Shown here piece after piece: positions 13,000 through 59,985 of a stretch of 64,000 nucleotides of DNA (position 1 is its first letter; each line of letters opens with the position of its first letter). The notes below the pieces were generated by a model, which saw only the letters and a list, made by a program, of their open reading frames with translations, was not told the origin of the DNA and ran no database searches. The translations under genes and the position numbers were made by a program. Location of the stretch: assembly GCA_948099385.1 (NCBI GenBank), contig CANUEZ040000168.1, positions 2,481,501-2,545,500 of the forward strand, in the 5' to 3' direction. The DNA comes from Fasciola hepatica. Lineage: Eukaryota > Platyhelminthes > Trematoda > Plagiorchiida > Fasciolidae.

Positions 13000-13004
13000 C
13001 CCTC
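13000..13004. repeat. BEL-2 target-site duplication, left copy (CCCTC)
   Basis: The five bases CCCTC immediately before the left LTR are repeated exactly at 17108-17112, after the right LTR. Five bases is the usual size for BEL/Pao integrase. Confidence 0.9.
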
Positions 13005-13363
13005 TGTAAGTCAAATCTCGCAAATCGAGCAACGCGTAGCCAATTCAAATGAATCCCAAAACCAGAACAAGATTGATTCGTAGCTTCTACGGTACTAAAT
13101 TGAAATGCACAAAGGATACAAATGTATACGAACCTCAAGTATGCGGCCAAATAGGCTTCACAGTAAAACCCAAAGTTCCAAAGCCCCGTGGCTCAAGCAC
13201 GACAGTCAGAAACGGTTCAGGGCCAAATTCAAATGTCTCACATGGATAAACAAACGTGAAAATGTGTGGTGTATGAGCGGGCTTTCCAAGATAATGTTAA
13301 ATATAGTCAAATTTACAAAGCACGTGGAACATTTAGAAGGATTTTCAGTATTCGTTCTTTACA
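13005..13363 (-). repeat. BEL-2 3' LTR
   Basis: Plus-strand text starts TGTAAGTCAAATC and ends GTTCTTTACA. It has the same length as 16749-17107, with four differences by eye (near 13051 and three in 13315-13335). On the minus strand it is preceded by the purine-rich GGAAGGATTTTGGCCGGCGG, a likely polypurine tract ending directly at the TGTA of the LTR. Confidence 0.92.
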
Positions 13364-14170
13364 CCGCCGGCCAAAATCCTTCCGCGAAAATGGTTGTCTA
13401 AGGTTCAGGAAGGGGTCATGATTCTCACCCTGTCTACCTTTAACTTATTGTTAGTGCCTGTGGTTACTAACTTCCTGTGTTATCTGAACGTTAAACAGGT
13501 TTTCGCCGTAGTCATCGTCGCACAATCCATAAAAAATCAATTCCAAATCCCGCTGCACAACTTGAGATTGACATTTTCATCAGGAGACCGGCGCATACAG
13601 TCAGACGCATGATGAAGATGAAGGACTCTCAGAGTAAAGTGTTTCGCCGCACGAAATGAGTCTAAGCATCACAAGCGTTAACACATTGCAGCAACTGGTT
13701 AGACTAATTTTGTTTACAAGCATGAGCGCAGAAGTTGAACGCAGGTGCAACGCCTAATGAGATATCGCCTAAAATTGACAGGTCACGAACCAGTGGAATA
13801 ACTTAAAATTAACGCACCAAATCTTCTGAAAGAAATGAAAACCGGTTTCTGATTATGAATAAATTTCGAAAACAAGTGTACGGCGGACAGTATCGAAATA
13901 CACATGAACACGGAGATTGATCGAATACTGGCATCTATCAGAGTATTTCAAAGTTTTTCTGTGCACAAAATATGTGGCAATCAATATTGTATAAAATGTA
14001 AATAAATGTTCTTCTTTAAAGATAATAATAGTTTCACAATGTGCTCACAGCTAGTGTGCCTCACCTGAACTATTCAAGTGAAATACTGCTGAATTTCTCC
14101 TCCTCGCCTATGTGCACGCTAGATAGAAAGTGGAACTAAGTAAATTTGCAACCTTTCAGAAAAAAATGGG
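13364..14170 (-). other. BEL-2 3' internal region without recognisable coding
   Basis: About 800 bp where related elements would carry integrase. Minus-strand translation is full of stops and no HHCC or D-D-E motif is visible. Only the likely polypurine tract at 13364-13383, next to the LTR, can be named. Confidence 0.5.
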
Positions 14171-14179
14171 TCCAGTTGA

Positions 14180-14602
14180 TTAGTTGTAGAGCATGAAATG
14201 GAATAAAACGCCGAGTGACTCGGAGCGAGGCGATCTGCGAGCTACTTTGTCTTTTGTATGTGGTTTCGAGCTCGAATCATAAACATTTACCTCGCTGTTT
14301 CTTGCTACGAGTGGATTAACTCTCTGATGTCTCGAACACGTTCTTCTTTTCTTCCGTTTCCTGTCATGTAACACAACTGTAGGATCTGTCCAATAGGCAA
14401 GGCTCAGTTCGGCGGTGGTGCAGTTCTCTTTTAGCATTCGTGCTACCTTAAAACCCAATACCAGTGCAGTCGTTTTGAGCTCGTTTAGGGATACTGACCT
14501 CAGCTCAGCAATTTTTGTTTTGGCAAAGGGTACTTTGTTTCGCCGCCGGCCATGCGGTTCCACCCAGGTACCGTACACTGTCACTGGGTCGGTAAATTTC
14601 AA
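14180..14602 (-). pseudogene. BEL-2 RNase H-like fragment
   Basis: Minus-strand stretch with AKTKIAELRSVSLNELKTTA, matching the BEL/Pao RNase H signature AK-x-R-x-PL-x-x-x-S(L/I)PRLEL-x-AA-x-L. It is followed by KVARMLKENC and YWTDPTVVLHD, the second acidic motif (W-TDS-x-VL), with S changed to P. The upstream half, including the first RNase H Asp region, is degraded. The stretch loses similarity near 14250. It lies in a different frame from the linker before it; the junction near 14600 is where the RT palm has been lost. Confidence 0.72.
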
Positions 14603-15087
14603 GCTGCTTTGGGTGACCTGCTGGTGTCCTTTTTGAGATATTTCAAAAGCCTCCGGGCAACTTCTCCTTTTCTCGATAGGTGACTTGACAGTGGTCTCTT
14701 GGGTATAGCAACTTCATGTTGCCCACTGTGAAGTCCCGTCTTTGAATTCGCCATCGAAAGCACCGACTGATCCTTTGAGTGAACTTCGCTTTCCTGAGAT
14801 GGACCGTTGGATTCAATATCAAAAGGCTGATTGTGTTCTACAGAGGCACTTCTTTCAGCAACATTTGAGCAATTTATTGATGCCGATTGTTGAAGTTCGC
14901 TCGTCAGGGGTCCGAGAAGTGTCCAGCCTAGTACCGTTCGCGTAGCGAATGGTTCTTTTCGATTGCTTATGCTCTGTTCAAGCACCCAGTGAGCCTCTGG
15001 TACATTGCATCCAGTTAGTATGTCGACGTGGGGGCTAGACACTTCTTCGAACTCTATGTCCCTGAGATGAGACCATCTCTTGGCGAT
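14599..15087 (-). pseudogene. BEL-2 protease-RT linker and RT N-terminus
   Basis: It contains HVDILTGCNVPEAHWVLEQ and ATRTVLGWTLLGPL, the conserved BEL/Pao segment between protease and RT (normally DLLIG, then T-x-LGW-x-GP). After it comes the RT N-terminal stretch GQHEVAIPKRPLSSHL and ARRLLKYLKK. It then runs straight into RNase H sequence, so the fingers and palm with the catalytic aspartates are deleted. An in-frame stop at 15088-15090 separates it from the protease. Confidence 0.75.
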
Positions 15088-15522
15088 CTATCTAACAGAG
15101 TCGACTGGTCTCATTGGCAAGCTGTCTATTGCAAAAGCTTCCGGAATTTCTACGGTCCCCTCATCAGATAAAGACGCTAACTGCAAGGTCAGCCTCTTAG
15201 AATTGCTAACATGACCCCCTGCAATCGTGCTGATAGTGAGCGAGGTAGGCTCGCCTACTAGTTCACAGCTTTCTACAAGCTCGCGAGTAATCAGCGAGGT
15301 ATCCGACCCCGTGTCCCAAAATGCATTGACCCTCCTCAGTCCTTTAGGTGTCACGATACCGACAGGTACGATACCTAATCTTGCCGGTTTGAAATCATTA
15401 TGTCCCGTTGAACAGACAATTTTGGGTTCATCCGGCTGAATAGGTCTATTGTTGAGAAGGCCATGCAGTAACGAGTGATGATTACCCAAGCATCCGTCTT
15501 GGTTGCATTTCACTCTTAAGCT
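15088..15522 (-). pseudogene. BEL-2 second zinc motif and aspartic protease
   Basis: It opens with CNQDGCLGNHHSLLH (CX4CX3HX4H, the second zinc motif of BEL/Pao Gag). The protease follows with FWDTGSDTSLITREL, where DTG is the catalytic triad of retroviral-type aspartic proteases and is intact. It is in the same frame as the gag core upstream, cut from it only by a TGA at 15523-15525 and from the linker by a TAG at 15088-15090. Confidence 0.82.
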
Positions 15523-16776
15523 TCATTCAGAGGCTCGATGAGAGTTGTTCAAACACATAAAGCTTGAGCCAATCCTTCTTACTGCCCACCACCGATCGGG
15601 TACACTCATCCCATGAAAGGTCGGACAATCTGGTAACCGATGTAGGGAGTTGCATAGCTTGCATTCAGCTGACCTCTCGGGTTCTTGACTAATCATGTGC
15701 ATGTTAGCCAAAGACTGGGTTTGGTTACAGTCCTTCTCCACAATTTGAGATGTTGGTTCCCTTCGCGCCAGTCTGCAACTTTCGCGTACGATTTGTCCAA
15801 ATCGACTGTTGGCGATACGGGATTGACGACCTATGAACTCCGTCAAATCGTTGAACGTAGATTCTCGCTCAAGCATATTTATTTTTTCAGCTTTCTCTGC
15901 CCATCGGCTCTGTAAATCAATAGATAGACATCGGACAATGCATTCCTGTGTGTGCAATGCATTCAAATCAGACTGGTATCCTAAGTGCTCCAGTGCTATA
16001 CTGCAATTCTGCATTTTTATCACCAAACTCTACAGTGATTCAGCCTTGCCCTCAGTCCTGTTCGCCTCCAATAAAACGCTATCAATTAGGCTTCTAGCCA
16101 ACTTGAATGGTTGTCCAAACAAATCTTCCAGGATTCTGCGCGCCCTGATGTACCCCATCGGTGGATCAAGCATCGCGCAGCCTTCGATAGCACTTTTGGC
16201 TCTCCCACGCCAGTAATGTAATAAATACAAAAACCTTTGACCAGGATCTGCAACTTTGCACTCAACAAAATTTTCGAACTGTTTCATGAATATACAGTAT
16301 TGGTCGGGGTGCCCGTCGAAGTGGGACAGCTCCACTCTCGGCAGGTCAAGAGCCAAAACCTCGGTAGTTTCAGGCTGTCTCAAGGGTTTATAATCGTCGA
16401 TCACAGTGCCTTTTCGATGTTGACATTGTGAACTACGTGGACTCTTTGCTGGCTCTCTGAGACCAGTTCCTTGTGTAAGGGGCTCTGCTTCCTTTCTGGC
16501 TAACCGCAGCTCGTTTTCTAATTCTATTACTCTCATTCTATAAGCACTAATATCGTCAAACGCATCGCGGTTAGAGATATATGACCTGGCACTGACAGAG
16601 CTAGTAAACTTAGCGTTATCTAGAGAATCAATAACACCCGAACCATCCCCAGAGACTTGCCGAGTTACTTCCTGTTGTCTCAAAAGGTCCTTGCTTCCTC
16701 GTCTGGGCATTTCCAATGAGTTTTCTTGCCCAGGTTCCACTTGAGTACTGTAAGTCAAATCTCGCAAATCGAGCAA
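15523..16776 (-). pseudogene. BEL-2 Gag (one internal amber stop)
   Basis: Gag reads from near the 5' LTR. A basic N-terminus (MPRRGSKDLLRQQ) is followed by a predicted coiled coil (YRMRVIELENELRLARKEAE) and the BEL/Pao gag core: LPRVELSHFDGHPDQYCIFM, FLYLLHYWRGRAKSAIEGC, ILEDLFGQPFKLARSLI, VIKMQNCSIALEHLGY. The zinc knuckle CKLCNSLHRLPDC (CX2CX3HX4C) comes next. A TAG at 16030-16032 interrupts it without a frame change. Gag would form the cytoplasmic particle that packages element RNA. It parallels BEL-3 Gag at 58.0-59.6 kb domain for domain. Confidence 0.85.
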
Positions 16777-17107
16777 CGCGTAGCCAATTCAAACGAATCC
16801 CAAAACCAGAACAAGATTGATTCGTAGCTTCTACGGTACTAAATTGAAATGCACAAAGGATACAAATGTATACGAACCTCAAGTATGCGGCCAAATAGGC
16901 TTCACAGTAAAACCCAAAGTTCCAAAGCCCCGTGGCTCAAGCACGACAGTCAGAAACGGTTCAGGGCCAAATTCAAATGTCTCACATGGATAAACAAACG
17001 TGAAAATGTGTGGTGTATGAGCGGGCTTTCCAAGATAATGTTAAATATAGTCAAATTCACAAAGCACGTTGAACACTTAGAAGGATTTTCAGTATTCGTT
17101 CTTTACA
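16749..17107 (-). repeat. BEL-2 5' LTR
   Basis: A 359-bp near-copy of 13005-13363, read on the minus strand upstream of gag, so the element promoter should lie here. Just inside it (16748 downward, minus) comes a GTACTCAAG stretch, then TGGAACCTGGGCAAG, a candidate primer-binding site because it begins TGG. The primer tRNA was not identified. Confidence 0.92.
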
Positions 17108-17112
17108 CCCTC
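17108..17112. repeat. BEL-2 target-site duplication, right copy (CCCTC)
   Basis: Exact match to 13000-13004. LINE-F sequence resumes directly after it. Confidence 0.9.
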
Positions 17113-30190: not shown

Positions 30191-31334
30191 TTTGGGGGAA
30201 TGAGGTAACTCTGTGCAGACTTGCTAGATGATCTCCAACAGGGCAATGCTAGAAAAACCCAGATTCCCGTGATCTTAGCAAGGAATATCCTTTTTCTATT
30301 GGGAAAATCCGGGGAGATGTGGGCAAACATACAGAAGGAACATAAAAACGCAGAAATTATGGTGTTTCCGGAAACCTGCTCGCACAAGAATGCACCTGAT
30401 AAATTTATACTATCGAATGATTCCATTTCGTACCGAGCCGACCGCCCTACTGTTGATCATAGTTGTGGTGGTGTCGTCACTTGCGTTAGCGGAAATTGAA
30501 GCAAGCTACTGAGCCTGGTCATTACCTACTCGAACAAAAAGATTAAAAGTAACTTCGTATACGGCGCTTCACAGTTTCTGGGTTGAGTCGGCTTGATACT
30601 CACTGGAATCGTTTACTTTGGACACAGCACATCAATTTCCGAGTGAAACATTTTCTGATCTTCTGTCCTTCTCAGAAACTGCATGAATAAATGGATCATC
30701 CTGCATATTTGTGGGCGGTTACAACTGGAGTGACTTTATTTCTCTCGTCCAGCTTAGGTTGGCATACTTGGTACGTTTTCATACCAGACTTGATGAGCAA
30801 CTAAACTTGGTTTTCACAAAAGGGGCACAATTTTTCGACGTTCAAAAGGGTGCTTTTCTAAACAACTCTGACCATTGCATCTTAAATTTACATCCACCAG
30901 TGTACAGTAAGACCAGCCGGTAAACTATGTCTCGAAGAATGCCCGAGAAAATGCAGTGGAGGAATAGTTCACCCAAAGACCTAACTAGGTTAAGGATCCT
31001 GGTTACGTCAACCGATTCTTCCGTGTTTTCAAACCCTAACCATTCTTCCTGCTGTGACTACGTCACTGACTGCACTTATTTTTGCTTTATTCATCGTTGC
31101 CTTTTTAAAACTGTCAAATTTCAAACCTGCAGATATTCTCATCCAGTACTTGAGTAAATACTAAGAAATAATGGGCCGGCGTACAAACAAGGACAGAGCA
31201 AACAAGTCGAAAATTTTACCAGCTTGATCGAACCTGAATCTGGAAGCCTGGATAAGTTGTACACAGATCCCATCCAAGGAAATGGAAGTTCTCGTGGTAT
31301 GTGGGCAGCCATAAAGCATCTACGTGGCAGCACC
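30190..31334 (+). pseudogene. LINE-G endonuclease and linker (relic)
   Basis: Plus-strand endonuclease of a non-LTR element. GKSGEMWANIQKEHKNAEIMVFPETCSH (family: K--EL---I---PDI--ITETWL) is followed by NDSISYRADRPTVDHSCGGVV (Y-YRRDR---GGGV). FVGGYNWSD at 30705 stands where the family has GDFN, so the catalytic Asp is Gly. NNSDHCILNL at 30860 is the C-terminal SDH motif. After it comes the pre-RT linker (FTSLIEPESGSLDKLYTDPI, MWAAIKHLRGS). At 31335 it is cut by a solo LTR and continues at 31712. Confidence 0.75.
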
Positions 31335-31711
31335 TGTAACACACGTTGGAGCAGTGCGTGGCCAAATTCACAGCAGATCCCGAAATCAAAAGGCGATTAT
31401 CCATGATATTCTACGACACTAAATTATCCAATGAGCAATGACACCAGAAAGATACAAACCTCAATTATGAGATCACAAGGACTCAACAAACGAGAAACCG
31501 AATTGCGGCGCGCGAGCAAGGAGCACGTGTGTCACGTGAGCCCAGAACAAGGACATGACAAAGTAGCGCTCTGGGCTCGCACAAACAAAAATTGGTCCAT
31601 AAAAACGAACAGTTCGTTAGGACACGTCAATAGTGTAAGCAAGTGCGTGATGTTAAGAAAAACACTGAACCGCGAAGGTTTTAGGGGTATTTTCCACGAC
31701 CGGTCGTTACA
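31335..31711 (-). repeat. BEL-3-family solo LTR inserted in LINE-G
   Basis: 377 bp, TGTAACACACGTTGG to GGTCGTTACA on the plus strand; sense is minus by comparison with the BEL-3 5' LTR. It has the same length as 52962-53338 and differs at only about half a dozen positions. No internal sequence or second LTR adjoins it, and LINE-G coding continues on both sides, so it is a solo LTR left by recombination. Flanks GCACC and GTACG match at three of five bases. An apparent open reading frame across it is fortuitous. Confidence 0.85.
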
Positions 31712-47700: not shown

Positions 47701-48257
47701 AAGTCACGATCAAGTGCTACATATACCAGTCTTAAATTGTGGGGTGTCCGGGAGCAATTGCATACACAGTCAAGGCAAGATCGATAAGATTATGCGTCCT
47801 CTAGTGAATAACTAAGAAAAGCCATTACGTACTAAATAGGGGTGTTAGATAGAGTTTGGCTGCGTCCAAAGTGTACTGAGCAGCATTTGGTTGTATCAGA
47901 ATAGCCAGCGAACCAGGTCACCGGGGGTCAACAAATAGAAATGGCCAGAAGTTAGCACGTCAAGCTTGCGCATGGGCGGGGGTTGCAGTGGTTCTTCCTC
48001 CGAAGAACAGGAAAGAACCAATCAGACGAAGGAATTTGGGGTGCACACAAAAACGAATGGGACCGCGAAAGGTATTCGTGGACAGACAGGCAAGCTGTGT
48101 GTGTGGTATCAACGAGTGTTCAATAAGTCTACCACGTGAGAACGGCATTTCGGGTCACACCAAAGACAGCTTGTATTACGTCATTGGTGCGAACGCCAGC
48201 AGCTTTGAAACCCGACCGGTAAGGAAATGAACGGGGACTAGTCACCAGGTCCTGATA
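47701..48257. other. no recognisable feature
   Basis: Flanking DNA left of the gag-only LTR element; no motif seen. Confidence 0.3.
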
Positions 48258-48261
48258 CTAG
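48258..48261. repeat. TSD of the gag-only element, left copy (CTAG)
   Basis: CTAG directly before the left LTR is repeated at 50219-50222, directly after the right LTR. Four bases fits a Ty3/gypsy-type integrase. Confidence 0.8.
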
Positions 48262-48553
48262 TGTTATAATCCAGAAGGCGTGCCTTGGTCGATAGGTTGT
48301 TTATTGACATCAACGTGTTCGGACATTGACAAAACAACACAAACGTTACAAACATCCTCATTTGCCAAGTGGCTGTCCTGTTCACTTGAAAACAGCCATC
48401 GTCCAACGGAGGAGCGGTCAGGTGGTTTGCAGATCGTCGCTTGCCTTATTGCGCCTGGATTGCTGAACTTAGCTGTGTTCGTTAATCCACAATTGTCCAT
48501 AGTTCTGTCTTCAGCAATCAACTACTTAATAAGTAGTATACACACTCACAACA
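48262..48553 (-). repeat. 3' LTR of the gag-only element
   Basis: 292 bp. It matches 49927-50218 except, by eye, at AACAACAC versus AACAGCAC and GCTTGCC versus GCTTACC. It contains the near-palindromic TACTTAATAAGTAGTA close to the plus-strand right end, which could be a promoter- or terminator-proximal structure. Confidence 0.93.
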
Positions 48554-48567
48554 CTCCTCCCCCCTGA
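48554..48567 (-). promoter_or_regulatory. polypurine tract (plus-strand DNA primer site)
   Basis: Read on the minus strand the sequence is TCAGGGGGGAGGAG, ending immediately before the TGTTGTGAG of the 3' LTR, as expected for the RNase H-resistant primer of second-strand synthesis. Confidence 0.85.
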
Positions 48568-48987
48568 CAAAAAAAAGATACTCCATATCCAGAGGACTGC
48601 CTTCAAGTCTTTCTCCATTCCGAGGTTCATACCTCCAACCCCGGTTCGTGGCGGTGTTGTCATCAACCCCACAACTCCTCCGGAGGTGTGCTTCTTCAGG
48701 TGAATAATCGGCATAGGATGAAACCTTGTGCTGAGGCGACTTCCACGATCAGTACCCACCTTTAGCGTGCCCCAGGCTGCTTGGCTGTCGTGGGAGATTA
48801 CCACGAAATAGTGCAAAGCTGCTTCCTTTCCCAGTGGGACCGCGCGTTGTGTCATTTGAACGTCATCCAGAACCGAGTGTTTAACTGTCTTGATTTGAAC
48901 GGCATCATATTCGGCTTCCTCCTTCGGCAGATTCTCTGGAGCACAAGCAACTTCTCTTGCAGTCTTCGGGCTAAACTCATTTTGGTC
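48568..48987 (-). other. non-coding 3' interior of the gag-only element
   Basis: About 420 bp between the gag stop and the polypurine tract. Minus-strand open stretches here (48526-48855 and 48852-49265) share no motif with Pol. The sequence may be the remnant of a deleted pol or a captured fragment. Confidence 0.5.
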
Positions 48988-49908
48988 TTAAATTTCGACT
49001 TCAGTCTGAGTTTCCTCATAGCTTGCAGCTTCAGTGACTGCGATATTAGACGACATATCTTCGGTTTCCTCGTCACAATGTTCATGTTCAAGGCAACCTG
49101 GGTAGCGATCTTCCGCATTTTCACAACGGATTTGGTTCGATTTTTCACAGTTCGCCAACTCATCGGTAATGGTTGAATTCTCGAGCAGTGATACTTCTGG
49201 TACAACTTTTTCGATGTTCTGCTGAAGATCAGGATATTCGTCCAAAACAGACTCCACATTTCCACAGCAGAAACACCCGGCTTCTTCCAACTGTCTGGCT
49301 TCCACTGTTCTGTCCTCCGTGTTCAAAATTTCTGGACCGTACGCCTTCTCCACACGGTCCCTGTTCCTCCATGGATCTCCAACATGGGCCGAATTGACCA
49401 CAGGCACGTCAAGCATGGCCAGTTCTCGAGCCACATCCGCGAGCTGGACCAGATTCAAGGAACGGCCGACACGGGCGACGCGTACCATCCCACGCAGGGG
49501 CTCCGGCAGACTATCCACGAATCGGTCTGCCAACAGGTCTGCCCGTGACGCCTCATCCAGCGTCGGCAACGCACGTTCCAGGAGTGAGCGGAGCGCGACG
49601 GCGTGCACCAGCGGGTCCGTACCAACCCCCAGCTGGGCAGCCTTGAACCGCCACATAGCGTCTTGACGGTCGGCCGGGGTGTCCAGTCCTGCAATCAGGG
49701 CGTCCTTTGCGGCGGCCCACTTCAGCTCCTTCGGGCCCCTTCGCGCCGCATCCAGCGCCGCCCGCGGCCTGCCCTTGAGAAGCGCTCGAAGGGCCGTCAA
49801 CTTACCCCGGTCCGACTGGATCCCCGAGAGTTCCGCCAGTTCCTCGAAATCCTCCAGGAAGATCCGTATGTCGCCATCCTCAAACGGCTCCGGCCATGGT
49901 AGATCCAT
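48988..49908 (-). CDS. Gag-like protein of the non-autonomous LTR element, 306 aa
   Basis: Intact minus-strand ORF starting at ATG 49908-49906, 19 bases inside the 5' LTR edge and overlapping the primer-binding site. A GTG nine bases upstream is less likely as a start. The first 200 residues look like a Ty3/gypsy Gag capsid: PWPEPFEDGDIRIFLEDFEE, GKLTALRALLKGRPRAALDA, DRQDAMWRFKAAQLG and SLPEPLRGMVRVAR. Near residue 220 CFCCGN looks like the first half of a CX2C zinc knuckle, but the His and last Cys are missing. The sequence then passes into an acidic, Glu-rich tail of about 85 residues (EETEDMSS, EETQTEVEI). Such a Gag could assemble and be packaged with a helper. Codon use is GC-rich in the capsid part and AT-richer in the tail, suggesting a fusion at a deletion point. 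Confidence 0.85.
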   Translation of the reverse strand: MDLPWPEPFEDGDIRIFLEDFEELAELSGIQSDRGKLTALRALLKGRPRAALDAARRGPKELKWAAAKDALIAGLDTPADRQDAMWRFKAAQLGVGTDPLVHAVALRSLLERALPTLDEASRADLLADRFVDSLPEPLRGMVRVARVGRSLNLVQLADVARELAMLDVPVVNSAHVGDPWRNRDRVEKAYGPEILNTEDRTVEARQLEEAGCFCCGNVESVLDEYPDLQQNIEKVVPEVSLLENSTITDELANCEKSNQIRCENAEDRYPGCLEHEHCDEETEDMSSNIAVTEAASYEETQTEVEI

Positions 49909-49924
49909 CCTGGTCACGGCACCA
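49907..49924 (-). promoter_or_regulatory. primer-binding site
   Basis: On the minus strand TGGTGCCGTGACCAGGAT starts two bases after the 5' LTR end. It begins with TGG, complementary to the universal CCA end of tRNA, at the usual place for minus-strand priming. The tRNA species was not identified. The site runs into the gag start codon. Confidence 0.75.
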
Positions 49925-49926
49925 AA

Positions 49927-50218
49927 TGTTATAATCCAGAAGGCGTGCCTTGGTCGATAGGTTGTTTATTGACATCAACGTGTTCGGACATTGACAAAAC
50001 AGCACAAACGTTACAAACATCCTCATTTGCCAAGTGGCTGTCCTGTTCACTTGAAAACAGCCATCGTCCAACGGAGGAGCGGTCAGGTGGTTTGCAGATC
50101 GTCGCTTACCTTATTGCGCCTGGATTGCTGAACTTAGCTGTGTTCGTTAATCCACAATTGTCCATAGTTCTGTCTTCAGCAATCAACTACTTAATAAGTA
50201 GTATACACACTCACAACA
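49927..50218 (-). repeat. 5' LTR of the gag-only element
   Basis: 292 bp, sense on the minus strand, directly upstream of gag, so it should hold the promoter. Near-identical to 48262-48553. Confidence 0.93.
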
Positions 50219-50239
50219 CTAGTAAAATAAGCGATGCTA

Positions 50240-50620
50240 TAAGGCTAAAGGTACGGCACTAAACATTTCAAAAAACATTGGCGGAGAGAGAAACCCACAA
50301 GCCGGAACAAGTGGCCCAAGTGCTCCGTGGGCAAGTCAGAAACAATCAAGAGCAATTCACATTCAGTCGTGTTAGATTCTCAAAAGAATTTAACACCGCA
50401 CTTGGATGATTGCGACCAGGCTTGGGCACCATTTTAGAAAAGGATACCTAGAGAAGTTTCAGCTATCAGCCAATCGGCCGAAGGACAACAAGGCAAACCA
50501 TACGGATGCAGACTGCAGAAAATGAGCCACATCATTCTTGGATGCAGAAGACTCAAAAGATGTCTTACTGAAGCGTTTCAAGCACTGGAAGTTCATTACG
50601 CATAAGAGCTGAGGATGATC
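50240..50620 (+). pseudogene. possible LINE C-terminal fragment
   Basis: Plus-strand translation near 50500-50600 contains MSHIILGCRRLKRCLTEAFQALEVHY, resembling the C-terminal zinc-like segment (C--C---E---HI---C) of some LINE ORF2 proteins. Only the HI-x-GC half is convincing and no RT adjoins it. Confidence 0.3.
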
Positions 50621-52956: not shown

Positions 52957-52961
52957 CCCCC

Positions 52962-53338
52962 TGTAACACACGCTGGAGCAGTGCGTGGCCAAATTCACAG
53001 CAGATCCCGAAATCAAAAGGCGATTATCCATGATATTCTACGACACTAAATTATCCAATGAGCAATGACACCAGAAAGATACAAACCTCAATTATGAGAT
53101 CACAAGGACTCAACAAACGAGAAACCGAATTGCGGCGCGCGAGCAAGGAGCACGTGTGTCACGTGGGCCCAGAACAAGGACATGACAAAGTAGCGCTCTG
53201 GGCTCGCATAAACAAAAATTGGTCCATAAAAACGAACAGTTCGTTAGGACACGTCAATAGTGTAAGCAAGTGCGTGATGTTAAGAAAAACACTGAACCGC
53301 GAAGGTTTTAGGGGTATTTTTCACGACCGGCTGTTACA
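52962..53338 (-). repeat. 3' LTR of BEL-3 (different subfamily from its 5' LTR)
   Basis: 377 bp, TGTAACACACGCTGG to GGCTGTTACA on the plus strand. It is almost identical to the solo LTR at 31335-31711 but only about 78 percent like the BEL-3 5' LTR (by eye). On the minus strand it is preceded by GGGAGGAATTTGGTAAGCGG, closely resembling the tract before the BEL-2 3' LTR. Confidence 0.8.
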
Positions 53339-53997: not shown

Positions 53998-54604
53998 CTA
54001 GGCCTCAGCGTTATCAGCTTCTCCGCCTTCACTCTCGAGTAGGCTAATACTGCGTATGTCACGAATGAGCACTCCGTTAGCTGTCTTCAACTTCACCGTT
54101 CTTATCATTCCGTCAATGCTTTCGATGGTTTCCGTAAATACTCCCAAAGACCAGGTGCTGAAATGTGCACTTTCGTCGGCGATCATAACTACATCCCCAA
54201 CCTTGAATGGCCTTGTTTTCACCAGCCACTTCTGTCGAGTCTGCAGAGCCGGTAGGTACTCCCGCAGCCATCGCCTCCAGAAAACCTTGGCAACATAGTT
54301 TGTCTGCTTCCATCCGCGGAGGTAGCTCCCGCGAAGGTTTACCGGCCCTTGGAAACCCTCGTTCGACCTTAACGCCAATTGGTCGTTCGGAGTAAGCGCC
54401 AGGTGGGTGGGGTCGCCGTTCATTACTGGAGCCAGGGGGCGGTTGTTCGGGATTCTCTCCACTTCAGTCATGACGGTGTTCAGCGTCTCGTTGTCGGGCG
54501 GCTGCTGCTCCATGGTCGAACGCAATATCCGCCTGGCGGGCCGGATCATGCTTTCCCATACGCCACCACAGTGGCTGGCATGTGGAGGATTGAAATGCCA
54601 TCGT
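53998..54604 (-). pseudogene. BEL-3 integrase, C-terminal part
   Basis: Minus strand. It begins with the third catalytic region: WHFNPPHA-type residues, HCGGVWES (Glu of D,D-E) and RRILRS. It continues with IPNNRPLAPVMNGDPTHLALTPNDQL, RGWKQTNYVAKVFWRRWLREYLPALQ and RQKWLVKTRPFKVGDVVMIADE, typical of the BEL/Pao integrase C-terminus. It ends with RTVKLKTANGVLIRDIRSI and a stop at 53998. It is open throughout and is separated from the core only by the solo LTR. Confidence 0.9.
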
Positions 54605-54610
54605 ATGCCA

Positions 54611-54987
54611 TGTAACAGCCGGTCGTGGAAAATCCCCCTTTTGCCCTCGCGATTCAGTGTTTTTCCTCACATCACTCATTTGCCTACACTATTGACTTGT
54701 CTTTACGAATTGGTTGTTTCTATGGACCAATTGTTGTTTGTTCGAGCCCGGAGCGCTACTTTGTCATATCCTTATTCTGGACCTGCGTGACGCACATGCT
54801 GTTTGCTCACATGCTGCTATTCGGTTTCTCGTTTGTTGAGTCCTTGTGATCGTATTATTGAGGTTTGTATATTTTTGATGCCATTGTTTATGTGATAATC
54901 TAATAACGCATAATATCGCGGATAAACATCTTTTGATTTCGGGATCCATTGCGAATTTGACTACGCATTGCTCAAACTTTCGTTGCA
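54611..54987 (+). repeat. antisense solo LTR inside BEL-3 integrase
   Basis: 377 bp, TGTAACAGCCGGTCG to CGTTGCA on the plus strand, opposite in orientation to BEL-3. It is closely similar (about 93-95 percent by eye) to the inverse of the BEL-3 5' LTR at 59608-59985. Flanks TGCCA (54606-54610) and TGCCG (54988-54992) are a 5-bp target duplication with one change. Without the insertion and one copy, the integrase reading frame is continuous. Apparent open frames inside are fortuitous. Confidence 0.92.
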
Positions 54988-54991
54988 TGCC

Positions 54992-55700
54992 GTAGGCTAC
55001 GGCTCGATACTGCAGTTCGTCCCCGTTTACGTTCTTCTGCCAACGCTGCAATTCCCGGTGAGCGCCCACAAAGTTCGATCCATTATCAGCATATATCGGC
55101 CGGTACGCCTCTTCGGTTGATAAATCTCTGCAAGGCCCGTGGAAACGAATCGGTCGTCATCGAATGTGCGACTTCTAGGAGTACCGCGCGTGACTTCATG
55201 CACGTCATGATACATCCATATCGCTTTTCTAATCTCTTCCGGCACTTGATCCACAAGAGCCCGAAATAGTCCAACCCGGTGTCGCTGAACGGCCACTAGC
55301 TCGCAGTCACCCTGCATTCTGGTAGCGGGGCCATATGTTGTTTACCCGCCGTGGCATTGCGTCTCCTACATTGCACACACCGTCGGATTACGCGTTTTAT
55401 AGTCTCTCGTCCTCTCAGCAACAAAAGACGCTTTCGGATGACGCTCGTCACGTGACTTTCCCTGGCATGTCCCTCCACAGCATGGAAGTGTTGGCTCATT
55501 AGCTCTGCCACAGTTTGCCGAGCCGGCAGCAGTATAGGGTACTTTGTGTCGAAGGTGGGCATTGGTCAGCCTACCATCCACTCGCAGCGGTCCATCGATG
55601 AGTTTGGGGCTTAAACGCTTCAATTCGCCTCTTGGAGATGATATTTCTTCGTTGATTGGTCTCACTTCTTCCACTCTCTCGAGTTCTCGCACGAAAGCCT
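54992..55700 (-). pseudogene. BEL-3 integrase, zinc domain and catalytic core
   Basis: Minus strand. LRVDGRLTNAHL and KYPILLPARQTV come before the zinc-binding HFHAVEGH and CVQC (HHCC, intact) at 55500-55370. The core opens with MDYFGLLWI (first Asp) at 55274, then KRYGCIMTCMKSRAVLLEVAHSM and the second-Asp region just before 55080, where the frame is disturbed. RELQRWQKNVNGDELQY leads to the solo LTR at 54987. At least three frameshifts lie between the parts. Integrase would join cDNA ends to the chromosome, making 5-bp duplications. Confidence 0.85.
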
Positions 55701-55842
55701 TTTGTTATATCATTCTGAAAATATTGTATTCTGCCGCTTGTAGCTCATCGGGACTTATCGGACCGGCCCGTATCCGGTCTGAGGGCCGTAGCCCTTTCAT
55801 GACCAGTAAGTTTCTTTTGAATCTGGTTAACCAAACTAACGC

Positions 55843-56919
55843 TCAGAGTGTCTTCATCCAGGAAGAAAACCTGACCAGTCGCGATAGAATGGATGTCGCT
55901 TCAACGACGTTGGCCGCTATCACTACGCCTTTAATCTCCTGTTCTACTTCCGTAGGGGTTTTTAATTCGAACACGGGCCAGTCCTGTTTGGGCAAGTGCA
56001 GGAAGTTTGGCCCTCTCGTCCGCGTGTCTAGTTGCCTGAAGTTGGTCGCACCTCGGGAGCGCAGATCGGCTGGACTATCGCCAGACCTGACATGCTTCCA
56101 CTGGTTCATGGCTGATTCATCGTGGATAATCGTGAGTCGGTTAGCAACGAAAGTACCAAGCCGGCTCCGGGCGTTGTTAATGTAGTAAAGTACTATCATC
56201 GAGTCCGTTCAAAAGCTAGCCGACCAAATGTAGAGGTCGAAACATCTCTTCACAGCTTGTCCCTGCCCGACTGCTAACACGGCTGCGCTGAGTTCAAAGC
56301 GTGGGATCGAGACCGACTTCAGTGGAGCAACGCGGGATTTAGCGAACAGGATCCTCGTGGTATATTGTCCATCTCCTGTGCACCATCGTCCTTGCAGCAC
56401 AGCCCCAAAACCGACTTCGGGTGCATCGGAAAACGCATGTAGTTCTCCTGTCCATGTTGCATGACCAGTGGCCAAACATCGTGGAATCCGTATGTCCCCT
56501 AATTTCTTCAAGGTGTTCAAAACTTCTTCCCAATCCAACCGGTCCCCTCGGTCCAGTGACTGGTCCCAATCAACTTTCTTACGGCACAGCCGCTGCAGCA
56601 AGATCTTCCCGGGTAGCAGCCATGGTGAGACGAAACCGAGCGGGTCGAACAAACTTGAGACAGCCGATAGCATGCCACGACGGGTTACAGACAACTCGGG
56701 AAAGTTTAGCTGTAAAACGAAGTCTGTTTCCGCATCCCATCGTATTCCTAAAGTGCCTTCGGTAGGGAGTGTAGAGCCATCCAAATCTCCTACCCTTTCG
56801 GCCTTTTCGTGATACGAGATTACCTTCAGCACTTCTGAAGCGTTCGACATCCATTTAGTTAGATGGAAGCCGCTCTCTTCTAGCGATCTCGCCAGGCCTC
56901 TGAACTGCTCTAGAGCTGA
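55843..56919 (-). pseudogene. BEL-3 RT thumb/connection and RNase H
   Basis: In frame with the RT before it. KWMSNASEVL, GTLGIRWDAETDFVLQLNF, LFDPLGFVSPWLLPGKILLQ (connection) are followed by HAFSDAPEVGFGAVL (first RNase H Asp), LFAKSRVAPLKSVSIPRFEL and the WTDS position. There the Trp codon reads TGA (56209-56211), and it is followed by TDSMIVLYYINN. NRLTIIH and QWKHVRSGDSPADLRSRG give the final acidic and His region. A second TGA at 55843-55845 replaces what is probably an Arg codon before ALVWLTRF. RNase H would remove template RNA and make the polypurine primer. Confidence 0.88.
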
Positions 56920-57591
56920 TTACACATCATCGAATGACCCAAGGTAGTCGTCGACGTAGAAGTTCCTGCTGACGCTATCTACCGCCGACCGGTGGACCAA
57001 GTCTCCGTGTTTGTTTGCAGTTTCCCAAAGGGCGTAGTTCGCACAAAATGGTGACGACATGGCTCCGAAGGGGTGGACGGTTATCCTATAATTTACCAAT
57101 GCGTTGTCACGGTCGTTCTCTTCCCACCACAGGAAGCGCACTGCATCTCGTTCTCCTACCGGTATTTTCACCTGGTGGAACACTTCCCTGATATCGGCGG
57201 ACAAGGCCACTCCACCCACTCTGAAACTGCGCAAAACTTCGATTAGTGGTGTGGTCCAGCCAGGCCCTTGTAGTAGGCGATCGTTTAACGACTTGCCCTG
57301 GAACTTGGCTGCACAGCCGAGACCCACTCGCAGCTTCCTGGGTTTCTTGGGGTTGAAAACCTGGTGGTGAGGTGGATACCAGATACTCTTTCGGCCGTCG
57401 GTGTTGGCAGGCACCTTTTCAGCGTAGCCGAGAGCTTCGTCTCGCTTCACTAATTCTGCGTATGGTTCCCACACATTCTGGTCTCGAATGAAGCGTTCTT
57501 TTGGTCGTAGTAATCGTTGGAAAACATACTTTCTGTTGTCAGTCCACGGGTCGACAGATGTGCGCCATGGGAGGGGAACCTCTAACTGCTT
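56920..57591 (-). pseudogene. BEL-3 reverse transcriptase
   Basis: Minus strand, open for 220 codons. KQLEVPLPWRT and KYVFQRLLRPKE (N-terminus) come first, then IWYPPHHQVFNPKKPRKLRV and SLNDRLLQGPGWTTPLIEVL. VALSADIREVFHQVKI holds the first catalytic Asp, followed by FLWWEEND and HPFGAMSSPFCANYAL. NFYVDDYLGSF carries the catalytic YVDD, intact. A TAA at 56920-56922 ends it without a frame change, and the same frame continues. This is the only RT in the window with a complete palm. The frame differs from the linker upstream, so an indel lies at about 57600. Confidence 0.92.
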
Positions 57592-58049
57592 TTGAGGCCT
57601 CTATTGCCTTGCCGCACAGTTTGTAGAGCGAAGTGATCCTCTTGGGACAACGTCAGTCTTTCGTTTCTCGTGTCGTGAAACTCCTTTTTATACAGCCGCT
57701 GCAGATGGTACTCTATGAGGTCCGTTCCGGCTGATAAATAGTTCATGGAACCACGTCCTTTTACTGGATTATATAACATTCATCCCAGAGCCGTGCGTAC
57801 GGCATAAGGTGCCTGGCGGTCGCCCACTCTCTGGCCCAGTACCCAATACGCCTCTCGCACGTCGCAGCTGATGAGGAGATCCACTTCATCGTCTTCCCAG
57901 TCTACAACGGTTACATCCTGCAGGTGGGGCCACCTAGTCAAGATTGCGTTCACTGACCTTGGTGCTCGCATGGGGAGACCAGCTAATGTGAATGCTTCTG
58001 TTGGCTCAATTCGCTCGTTAGTCTCTAAGGAGATGAGTTGCAGTCTCAA
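57592..58049 (-). pseudogene. BEL-3 protease C-terminus and protease-RT linker
   Basis: Minus strand. LRLQLISLETNERIEP continues the protease after a frameshift at 58046-58049. Then comes VNAILTRWPHLQDVTV, VDLLISCDVREAYWVLGQ (family DLLIG-D---YW) and VRTALG followed by TGA at 57780-57782, where relatives have Trp (LGW). After it MLYNPVKG, HLQRLYKKEFHD and LTLSQEDHFALQ are in the same frame. Confidence 0.8.
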
Positions 58050-59203
58050 CCGGCCGCAGTCATTACTTGTGTTCCTCCCACCGTGCTCACTGCTAACGAC
58101 GTCGTACTTTTAGCGAGCCGGTGTTTTTCGACAAACCGCTCTTTCACTAGAGTAGTGTCAGATCCACTGTCGACGAAAGCCAACGCTTCCACCACCCCAG
58201 TTGGGATCACCAACCTCACGGTAACTACTCCCAAAGGTACTGGTTTACTGGCAGACCGCGAGGTTGAACAAATCACATTGGGCTTTGCGCTCGCCTCGGG
58301 TAAGATTACTCTCGCCTGATGCAGCAGCCGATGGTGTCTGCCCGTGCAGCCCTCGTGACCACATCTGTTCCTCGTTCTACAAGCTTCCGCCCGGCGCGTG
58401 GCGTTGCGACAAATAGAACACGCTCCTGCAATCCTCGCCATTCCCCATCGTTCGTCTATTGTGGCGTTGCCGAACTTGGGGCATTCTGGTAGGCCATGGC
58501 TAGCATCACAGGACCTGCAGCTTGTTTGGGCTATGGCATCGCGTGAAATGGCGTGTGCATTGGTCCAAGGCTGATATTCCGGATGTTCTCGTGCAGGGGG
58601 TTGGGATTGGCTAGTACTGGGCTTGTTTGCCCGGTTGCTGTCCCGAATGAGTCGGCCGAACCTGCTGTCAGCTATCTTGGTTTGCCTCTCCAAGTATTCG
58701 GTCAGGTCCTCGAAGTTAGCTTCCCTGTCGCTTCGGATTATCCGTTCCGCTTCTTCCGCCCACCGACCCTGTAGTTCGGGAGAGAGGTGACGGACTATGT
58801 TTTCCAAAGTGTGCATGGCATCTAGGTCAGCCCTGTAACCTAAATGGTCGAGGGCTATTGAGCAGTTCTGCATGTTGATCACCAGGTCGGCCATTTTATA
58901 GGCGTCGCCCTTGGTTCTCTTTGCCTCTACCATCACGCCCTCTATTAGGTTATGGGCTACTTTGAACGGTTGGCCAAACAAGTCCCTTAGAATCTTCCCT
59001 GCTCGGGTAAAGCCTTGTTCCGGGTCGAGCATGTTACACCCATCGATAGAATCCCTTTCTCGGCCTTGACAGTAGTGAATCAGATTGAGGAGCATTTGCC
59101 CGGGGTCGGTTACCTTACTTTCAACAAACGTCTCGAACTGCTTGACAAACTTGCAGTAGTGTTCAGATCGCCCGTCAAAAGCCGTTAGTTCCACTCTAGG
59201 CAA
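58046..59203 (-). pseudogene. BEL-3 Gag core, zinc motifs and aspartic protease
   Basis: A single open frame of 385 codons on the minus strand. The Gag core has LPRVELTAFDGRSEHYCKFVKQFE, LLNLIHYCQGRERDSIDGC, LRDLFGQPFKVAHNLI and LVINMQNCSIALDHLGY, followed by ETQ-like helices. The zinc knuckle CRSCDASHGLPEC (CX2CX3HX4C) and second motif CGHEGCTGRHHRLLH (CX4CX3HX4H) follow. The protease has FVDSGSDTTLVKERF, with catalytic Asp at about residue 345 (DSG intact). Its flap-side part is cut by a frameshift after VGGTQVMTAAG. The layout equals BEL-2 15088-16330. Confidence 0.92.
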
Positions 59204-59245
59204 ATCGATCGATGGTGGTTTGTAGCATTCGACCGGCGTGGAGTT

Positions 59246-59590
59246 TCATATTTTATTTTGCCCTGATCTATCGGAAGTGTCAAAGCCGCTGGTCTCATGC
59301 TCTCGCTCTTTCTGTGTACACTTCTTTTCTGCTTCCTGTGCCTGTAGTCTAGCCGATAGTAACTGTTGTTCTAGGTCTAGTATTCTCAGCTTATATAAAT
59401 CAACATCCTTACGGTCCATATTGCTCCCAATAACACATGAACAACCACTGATTGGACTAGGCGATCCAAAGTTAACTAAAGAATCAACTGTACCCAAAAC
59501 CTCCCCAGAAACTTGCCGTGTTACTTTCTGTCCGGAGTCCAGTGTTTTCGTTTCTTTTCTTGGCACTTTGCGTGTTTTTCCTCGTTCCAA
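59246..59590 (-). pseudogene. BEL-3 Gag N-terminus
   Basis: 115 codons in the same frame as the Gag core, separated by a TGA at 59246-59248 and 14 codons. Basic start (MERGKTRKVPRKETK), then VTRQVSGEV-x-GTVDSL, which parallels BEL-2 VTRQVSGDG-x-GVIDSL. A coiled coil follows (LYKLRILDLEQQLLSARLQAQEAEKK). The ATG lies close inside the 5' LTR. Confidence 0.85.
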
Positions 59591-59607
59591 ATTGATCTAT
59601 TGAGTAT

Positions 59608-59985
59608 TGTAACGAACGTTTCAGTAATGCGTAGTCAAATTCGCAATGGATCCCGAAATCAAAAGATGTTTATCCGCGATATTATGCGTTATTAGATTAT
59701 TACATAAACAATGACATCAAAAATATACAAACCTCAATAATACGATCACAAGGACTCAACAAACGAGAAACCGAATAGCAGCGTGTGAGCAAACAGCATG
59801 TGCGTCACGCAGGTCCAGAATAAGGATATGACAAAGTAGCGCTCCGGGCTCGAACAAACAACAATTGGTCTATAGAAACAACCAATTCGTAAAGACAAGT
59901 CAGTAGTGTAGGCAAATGAGTTATGTTAAGAAAAAATATGGAACTGCATTGGTTTTTGGGGTATTTTCCACGGCCGACCGGTACA
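59608..59985 (-). repeat. BEL-3 5' LTR
   Basis: 378 bp, TGTAACGAACG to CGACCGGTACA on the plus strand; sense is minus, directly upstream of gag. It is closely related to the inverted solo LTR at 54611-54987 and more distantly to 52962-53338, 31335-31711 and 39990-40372. Confidence 0.9.

What the first reader, a model, noticed from the sequence alone, without database searches (positions are those of the whole stretch)
48258..50222. Minimal gag-only LTR retrotransposon that looks recently mobile
Seen: matching 292-bp LTRs with about two differences, CTAG target duplications, a TGG primer site at the 5' LTR, a G-rich polypurine tract at the 3' LTR, and only one sizeable frame, an undamaged 306-aa Gag. 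Known: gag-only LTR elements (TR-GAG) were described in plants; I am not aware of a well-documented flatworm equivalent. Inference: it keeps Gag under selection or lost pol very recently, and borrows protease, RT and integrase from a full-length relative.
Basis: partly seen in the sequence, partly recalled or inferred. Interest (0 to 1): 0.75.

Follow-up and report, generated by a model that had tools for sequence, protein, structure and literature searches.

The report
Gag-only retrotransposon family in a fluke
This is one copy of a large family of small fluke retrotransposons that encode only a Gag-type coat protein and share almost identical ends with a rarer, fully equipped relative whose enzymes they most likely use.

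Summary
The element is real: 292-nt LTRs (2 differences), CTAG duplication, tRNA-His primer site, polypurine tract. It is not a private deletion. The host assembly (1.5 Gb, unnamed, Fasciola-like) gave 41 full-length DNA matches at 96-100% and 129 scored gag places (both lower bounds). Of 34 loci inspected, 33 keep a 4-bp duplication around a TA-CTAG-TA palindrome, and all have an interior too short for pol. The "undamaged 306-aa Gag" is wrong: 34 of 41 copies have one 453-465-aa frame filling the interior; the window copy has a premature stop. Variants shared between copies show purifying selection on the Gag core; private variants look neutral. A likely autonomous partner exists: 1286-aa frame, CCHC knuckle, protease, RT/RNase H, identical LTR pair, 4-bp duplication. 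Its LTRs are identical to those of one gag-only copy (L016), yet Gag dS is about 0.7, rising from 0.3 at the start to over 1.4. So pol was not lost recently: the gag-only line is old, keeps its own Gag, and its ends were exchanged or homogenised with the partner. Its Gag has lost the zinc knuckle and carries an orphan, largely acidic module. The kind is known from plants (TR-GAG, Sabrina/WHAM); my searches listed no animal case.

The parts
48258..48261 (.). target-site duplication CTAG, 3' side of the element
   Evidence: sequence; 33 of 34 loci have matching 4-bp duplications
48262..48553 (-). 3' LTR, 292 nt
   Evidence: repeat pair; multi-copy
48554..48565 (-). polypurine tract AGGGGGGAGGAG
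   Evidence: variants across 41 copies; same tract in the partner
48554..48649 (-). 3' end shared with the partner's last pol codons, 3' UTR and PPT (97% over this stretch plus the 3' LTR), read in another frame by the gag-only ORF
   Evidence: blastn of W and L011 against L063; alignment of L016
48566..48987 (-). remainder of the family ORF, cut off in this copy by the stop at 48988-48990
   Evidence: open in 34 of 41 copies; no stop in the Gag frame against 8-15 in the other two
48988..49908 (-). 306-aa truncated Gag ORF (stop TAA at codon 307)
   Evidence: the changed base is C in 39 of 41 copies, (alignment column 1230)
49261..49275 (-). half zinc knuckle (C-F-C-C-G, residues 212-216); homology to the partner's Gag ends near this point
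   Evidence: CX2CX4HX4C in 0 of 41 copies, half knuckle in 37 of 41; partner CFYCGKVGHFWRQC; DNA alignment of L011 ends at nt 977 (codon 222)
48991..49260 (-). start of the orphan module (net charge -22 over residues 216-330 in copy L011)
   Evidence: relatives of the long-form module only in F. hepatica P0004 besides the query P0001
49909..49924 (-). primer-binding site TGGTGCCGTGACCAGG
   Evidence: 15 of 16 nt complementary to the 3' end plus CCA of a tRNA-His(GTG) gene of the same genome
49927..50218 (-). 5' LTR, 292 nt, with AATAAA at LTR position 249
50219..50222 (.). target-site duplication CTAG, 5' side of the element

Best explanation
The window holds one copy, damaged by a stop, of a semi-autonomous Gypsy-type LTR retrotransposon family whose working members encode a single protein: a Gag core followed by an orphan module, acidic at first and basic at its end, that stands where the nucleocapsid zinc knuckle should be. 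RNA is most likely made from the 5' LTR, translated into this Gag, packaged in particles with the Gag-Pol of a low-copy autonomous relative, primed by tRNA-His, reverse-transcribed by the relative's RT and inserted by its integrase with a 4-bp duplication. Shown: anatomy, copy number, target-site consensus, selection on the Gag core among shared variants, an intact-looking partner with near-identical LTR, PBS and PPT, and an old split between the two Gags. Inferred: co-packaging, supply of enzymes in trans, template switching as the means by which the ends stay alike, and the role of the orphan module.
For: Copies: 41 of 43 DNA matches full length at 96-100%; 129 scored gag places of 2334 candidates. 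33 of 34 loci with a 4-bp duplication; LTR pairs differ at 0-7 of 292 sites, median 1.5, 7 of 34 with none. Target over 33 sites T30 A24 [C23 T21 A25 G23] T25 A30; without the 7 sites in TAG/CTA microsatellites, T23 A17 [C19 T14 A18 G20] T20 A23 of 26. Two partner copies, C67 and C43, have the same kind of 5' flank, TA-CTAG and TA-CTAC (3' side not read). Selection: singletons N:S:stop 184:75:6 against a neutral 67.8:28.5:3.7%; variants shared by two or more copies 43:50:1; Gag core shared 14N:29S, P = 3e-6 against neutrality. Partner C102:6480049: LTR pair identical, duplication GCGT, CCHC, DTG, RT_RNaseH at 1.6e-38 and RVT_1 at 6e-9, 1286-aa frame. Its LTRs show 0 differences from L016's, while Gag codons 1-178 have dS 0.65-0.85 in 29 copies and dN/dS 0.25-0.29 in the four copies for which it was printed. 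PBS matches tRNA-His. Autonomous copies are few: 7 places at 98-100% and 3 at 91% over LTR plus gag.
Against: No expression, particle or new-insertion data. The partner was read only in unjoined pieces (about 2.6 of 4.5 kb); its full frame rests on the tool's open-frame count, and its integrase core was not read. The C102 site (CA-GCGT-GA) does not fit the gag-only target consensus well. Pfam zf-CCHC scores 19.2 bits on the partner, just under the cut-off of 20.8. Some duplications lie in microsatellites, where a 4-bp match is cheap (7 of 33). Selection is not significant for codons 176-306. A structure model of the Gag was poor (pLDDT 42) and its fold search not significant. Genome searches score only top candidates, so a rare full-length element with a gag-only-type Gag is not excluded; nor is another helper family.
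Confidence: 0.85

Rival explanations
1. Recent internal deletion: the element is a recently pol-deleted copy of a full-length family that keeps its gag only by descent.
For: Shares 5' LTR, PBS, last pol codons, 3' UTR, PPT and 3' LTR with the autonomous element at 96-100%, as a deletion derivative would.
Against: Gag differs from the partner's at dS 0.65-0.85 (29 copies) while 5' LTRs differ at 0-12 of 292 sites (41 copies). Homology stops at the zinc knuckle and is followed by a module that matched none of the partner pieces seen. A long subtype resembles a Fasciola hepatica protein (P0001; L049 464 of 503 aligned residues identical). Shared variants show purifying selection.
Confidence: 0.07
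2. Passive passenger: Gag is not used; open frames persist only because the copies are young.
For: Private variants are neutral, so single copies are not maintained. The C-terminal module evolves fast (dN/dS about 0.6) and the shift in codons 176-306 alone is not significant (P = 0.37).
Against: Shared variants in the Gag core are depleted in replacements (14N:29S, P = 3e-6; against singletons P = 0.001). 34 of 41 copies are open over about 460 codons. Partner against gag-only Gag has dN/dS 0.25-0.29 at dS 0.68-0.80 in four copies.
Confidence: 0.06
3. The Gag is an interfering or decoy protein: gag-only elements poison or reshape the partner's particles, in the manner of truncated Gag inhibitors (recalled), rather than supplying useful capsid.
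For: Knuckle lost, acidic segment where a basic nucleocapsid would be; gag-only places far outnumber close partner copies.
Against: No functional data; selection on one's own Gag is expected under either role; interference was not tested.
Confidence: 0.2
4. Dispersal is mainly by DNA-level tandem duplication, not retrotransposition.
For: 64 of 129 scored gag places lie in 11 arrays, mostly with 1.65-2.1-kb steps; the C80 array unit repeats flanking sequence and a microsatellite.
Against: 65 of 129 are single; 33 of 34 inspected loci have 4-bp duplications at a palindromic target, and the three arrays among them keep the duplication at their outer edges.
Confidence: 0.05

Closest known systems
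TR-GAG elements of plants (PMC8704663, passages read)
   Same: LTR retrotransposon with a single ORF for Gag; one transposed in the Arabidopsis ddm1 mutant and has a highly similar potentially autonomous relative
   Different: plants; this one is Gypsy-like in a fluke, its Gag lacks the knuckle and carries an orphan module, and its Gag is long diverged from its partner's while LTRs are nearly the same
Wheat semi-autonomous RLG_Sabrina_SA / RLG_WHAM with RLG_Wilma (PMC9744471, passages read)
   Same: families without RT and integrase that keep Gag and are thought to co-evolve with an autonomous family; Sabrina variants replace the coding segment modularly
   Different: those keep Gag plus protease and Sabrina is 6.6-8.3 kb; this is 1.96 kb without protease
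ta-TRIM and its candidate helper lennie in taeniid tapeworms (PMC4558846, passages read)
   Same: flatworm non-autonomous LTR element with a pol-bearing candidate helper sharing PBS and mostly 4-bp duplications; some tandem copies
   Different: ta-TRIM lacks coding sequence and its PBS is for tRNA-Leu
CsRn1/PwRn1 Gypsy clade of flukes (PMC2582038, passages read)
   Same: fluke Gypsy elements with 4-bp duplications; PwRn1 has one gag-pol frame
   Different: CsRn1-like elements use tRNA-Trp and a CHCC Gag motif; the partner here has tRNA-His and CCHC
Non-autonomous pararetroviruses with concerted non-coding regions (PMC5491270, abstract and outline read)
   Same: non-autonomous and autonomous partners keep the same non-coding control regions through recombination
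   Different: plant pararetroviruses, not LTR retrotransposons

Membership tests
LTR retrotransposon | paired direct LTRs with TG...CA ends, PBS, PPT, fixed-length target duplication | tested here: met
TR-GAG / semi-autonomous gag-only element | multi-copy element whose only long ORF is Gag, no protease, RT or integrase | tested here: met
   34 of 34 first-inspected loci are 1954-1959-nt elements or LTR-sharing arrays of such units; no Pfam pol domain in the three window ORFs scanned; Gag by homology to the CCHC-PR-RT partner
TR-GAG / semi-autonomous gag-only element | Gag frame preserved by selection across copies | tested here: met
   clear for the core (codons 1-175), not for 176-306, weak for 307-440
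TR-GAG / semi-autonomous gag-only element | mobilised by enzymes supplied in trans | not testable with these tools
   only indirect: same LTRs, PBS and PPT as an intact-looking partner
Canonical retrotransposon Gag | CCHC zinc knuckle CX2CX4HX4C | tested here: not met
   0 of 41 copies; half knuckle in 37 of 41; partner has it
Canonical retrotransposon Gag | capsid fold | tested here: inconclusive
   model pLDDT 42, fold search without significant match
Ty3/Gypsy superfamily (partner) | protease, RT, RNase H, integrase in that order downstream of Gag | tested here: inconclusive
   CCHC and DTG in L062, RVT_1 and RT_RNaseH in L064, 1286-aa frame; integrase seen only as a GPY-like tail in L063 (motif recalled), its core was not read
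CsRn1 clade | tRNA-Trp primer site and CHCC Gag motif | tested here: not met
   PBS pairs 15 of 16 with tRNA-His; partner knuckle is CCHC
Retrozyme / ribozyme-bearing LTR element | hammerhead ribozyme in the LTR | tested here: not met
   no Rfam match up to E = 1 in 48200-50300

The most novel reading that the evidence does not exclude
The gag-only line is an old, independently evolving 'capsid parasite or donor' of an animal Gypsy element: it swapped the RNA-binding nucleocapsid for an orphan acidic module that gives its Gag a new role (choosing its own RNA or reshaping the partner's particle), and it stays compatible by repeatedly taking over the partner's LTR, PBS, PPT and even the start of gag through template switching.
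Probability: 0.4. Interest if true: 0.8.

Novelty: new variant of a known kind. Interest (0 to 1): 0.62.

Why it matters
It brings the plant concept of semi-autonomous gag-only retrotransposons into an animal, with a candidate partner in hand. The contrast of identical ends and long-diverged Gags makes a general question testable: how non-autonomous elements stay recognisable to a changing helper while keeping a protein of their own, and what a Gag without its nucleocapsid knuckle is for. The family also forms many tandem arrays in this genome.

Tried and rejected
Chance repeat: excluded by the size of the repeat and the copy number. Ribozyme-bearing retrozyme: no Rfam match. Pfam on the Gag: no family at E <= 1; PDB sequence search: none. 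A truncated lineage (W plus L025) that spread despite the stop: the stop is the only variant these two alone share, and the tree pairs them elsewhere with modest support, so recurrence is likelier. Public gag-pol proteins with this Gag: none among the 7993 best candidates scored. Fold prediction with 5 sequences was poor and all PDB matches had E >= 1; Arc (E 4.4) and Ty3 capsid (E 9.2) chains appeared, which I do not count. Diverged relic at L051/L061: truncated, no helper. L042, an LTR-like tandem array beside copy L039, gave no gag match. Agreement of LTR and interior distances is weak (Mantel r 0.21, P 0.04), which fits exchange of ends but does not prove it.

Counting choices: in the selection test one copy per array was used (34 of 41); changes with no observed single-step codon partner were dropped; the neutral expectation uses the singleton spectrum of the whole element. 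The dS range uses 29 of 34 loci; the 5 in which ATG is not at the expected offset were dropped. Arrays are places less than 12 kb apart.

Full report
Observation. The window element spans 48258-50222 with its duplication and reads on the minus strand. The two 292-nt LTRs lie in a 294-nt direct repeat with 2 differences. CTAG flanks both sides, TGGTGCCGTGACCAGG follows the 5' LTR after two bases, AGGGGGGAGGAG precedes the 3' LTR, and an ATG directly after the PBS opens a 306-aa frame.

Family. A DNA search returned 43 matches from 34 scored candidates out of 1971; 41 are full length at 96-100%. I fetched 33 loci and analysed them with the window copy: 34 loci, 41 element copies. 33 of 34 loci have a perfect 4-bp duplication (L020 has none). 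LTR pairs differ at 0-7 of 292 sites (median 1.5; 7 of 34 at 0). Single copies are 1954-1959 nt long. Two copies at different sites, L027 and L034, differ by about 0.1% on the tree and each has an identical LTR pair. Over 33 duplicated sites the target is a palindrome, TA-CTAG-TA, as expected of an integrase; it remains after removing the 7 sites that lie in TAG/CTA microsatellites.

The ORF. In 34 of 41 copies one frame of 453-465 aa runs from the ATG through the entire interior into the 3' LTR. The window copy and L025 have a stop at codon 307; L026, L028 unit 2, L036 and L041 have other stops, and L035 unit 3 a deletion. The last codons vary with the length of a T run before the PPT.

Selection. 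With one copy per locus (34), variants seen once are N:S:stop 184:75:6, matching the neutral 67.8:28.5:3.7%. Variants shared by two or more copies are 43:50:1, the one being the stop at codon 307. In the Gag core (codons 1-175) they are 14N:29S against 69N:40S for singletons (P = 0.001; against neutrality 3e-6). Codons 176-306 show no significant shift (16N:9S, P = 0.37) and 307-440 a weak one (13N:12S, P = 0.04). The lineages that transpose thus keep Gag, and single copies then decay.

Copy number and arrays. A protein search scored 129 of 2334 candidates, all 92-100% identical; the longest open frame was 557 aa. 65 are single and 64 lie in 11 tandem arrays. In the array pieces read, neighbouring units share an LTR. 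The three arrays in the first set (3, 4 and 3 units) keep the duplication at the outer edges, and one array (C80) repeats flanking DNA too; unequal exchange after insertion fits best, as was proposed for ta-TRIMs (PMC4558846, passages).

Subtypes. 8 of 15 further loci carry a longer interior: the first 963 nt match at 96-97%, followed by a different 3' module about 62% alike to positions 707-1373 of the short form (L052 without a second LTR in the piece read). This long form gives a 538-aa ORF in L049 that is identical to the F. hepatica protein P0001 at 464 of 503 aligned residues. L050 has a long-form interior with a 97% gag but LTRs only 74-75% alike, a direct case of exchanged ends. The C-terminal modules of the two forms differ at dS 0.87 with dN/dS 0.61 over 188 codons; both are open in the Gag frame and have 8-15 stops in the others, and 0 of 2000 shuffles of the short module were open. 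They are coding but loosely constrained.

Partner. The Echinostoma protein P0003 (found) led to places with open frames of 1282-1334 aa (4 of 125 rows) and one of 996. At C102 the LTR, PBS and first codons were read (L062), then an inner and a 3' piece (L064, L063). The LTRs are identical to each other, with GCGT duplicated. The frame starts with a Gag 59% identical over 231 aa, has CFYCGKVGHFWRQC, then DTG, and RVT_1 and RT_RNaseH domains. L016's LTRs are identical to it in all 584 positions; the window copy differs at 8 of 292 in each LTR. The 5' LTRs of two other partner copies, C67 and C43, are 9 and 8 substitutions (C43 also 2 gap positions) from C102's; on the LTR tree partner and gag-only LTRs do not form separate groups, though support is poor. 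The 5' flanks of C67 and C43 are TA-CTAG and TA-CTAC, as in the gag-only copies; C102's is not. Yet Gag codons 1-178 have dS 0.65-0.85 in 29 copies. dS rises along gag: 0.26-0.31 in codons 1-60, 0.66-0.94 in 61-115, 1.42-1.83 in 116-178 in four copies. That gradient away from the shared LTR and PBS fits exchange tracts of varying length reaching into gag, though uneven constraint could contribute.

With the partner's Gag-protease piece as query, 126 of 2768 candidates were scored: 8 rows are at least 96% identical from residue 1 to 313 or 314, and a ninth (C63) 97% from residue 32. Four of these have unbroken frames of 1282-1334 aa (C102, C43, C179, C67). The gag-only rows, at about 58-62%, end near residues 218-230, at the knuckle; an array at C190 (66%) ends at 193. 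Over LTR plus gag, 7 places are 98-100% and 3 are 91%. The close autonomous family is thus much rarer than the gag-only one.

Module in place of the knuckle. Homology to the partner stops at nt 977 of copy L011, just after C-F-R-C-G, and resumes near nt 1570 at the partner's pol end. Between lie a segment with net charge -22 over 115 residues and a basic tail. A search with the long-form module (P0001 residues 205-503) found, besides P0001 itself, only F. hepatica P0004 among 1456 candidates; the short-form module was not searched separately. No copy of 41 has the complete knuckle.

Primer. A pattern recalled from tRNA-His found 58 places in the genome, each with 2 mismatches. One fetched gene is called tRNA-His(GTG), and its 3' end plus CCA pairs with 15 of 16 PBS bases. 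That copy has an acceptor-stem mismatch, so other copies may pair fully; I did not read them.

Mechanism. The likeliest cycle: transcription from the LTR (AATAAA in 34 and TATATA in 36 of 41 5' LTRs), Gag made by the element, particles shared with the partner's Gag-Pol, tRNA-His priming, integration by the partner's integrase. Because both LTRs of a new copy are regenerated from one template (established knowledge), identity of both LTRs between L016 and C102 is hard to explain by gene conversion of single LTRs and fits recombination during reverse transcription. This is inference.

Literature. A plant TR-GAG element transposed in Arabidopsis (PMC8704663, passages). Wheat Sabrina and WHAM keep Gag and protease and are thought to co-evolve with autonomous Wilma (PMC9744471, passages). 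Non-autonomous pararetroviruses keep control regions like their partner's by recombination (PMC5491270, abstract). My searches for gag-only elements in trematodes, flukes and animals listed no such case; most subscription papers are not in that library, I read only listings and passages, and repeat collections could not be searched.

Verdict. A real, recently active, semi-autonomous gag-only family: a new variant of a known kind, unusual for its animal host, its old separate Gag, its lost knuckle and its shared ends.

Noticed in passing
L042 (G000:C105:2606400-2616300): Tandem array of about 1.5-kb units (7 LTR-like stretches, about 75% like this element's LTR; 6 tRNA-Gly genes called; the one unit printed ends in a TAG microsatellite), without gag match; recalls the small-RNA-gene-bearing non-autonomous LTR elements of PMC10886601.
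   Followed up: partly
G000:C116:7873992-7957031: 52 matches to a tRNA-His-like 5' sequence, mostly at 1.5-kb spacing, probably a tRNA-bearing tandem array.
   Followed up: no
window 13004-17109: BEL/Pao-like element with 362-nt LTRs 98.9% identical and a coding region broken by stops.
   Followed up: no
window 54001-59935: BEL/Pao coding remains (Peptidase_A17, DUF5641) with a 328-nt repeat (96%) at both sides in inverted orientation, odd for an LTR element.
   Followed up: no
window 31333-31711 and 52960-53338: 379-nt direct repeats, 98.4% identical, 21.6 kb apart, related at about 80-82% to the inverted repeats near 54.8 and 59.8 kb; perhaps solo LTRs.
   Followed up: no
L047 (G000:C80:1819000-1828900): Array unit carries a full LTR, a TAG microsatellite, some flanking DNA and a second partial LTR end before the PBS, so the array copies a composite locus.
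   Followed up: partly
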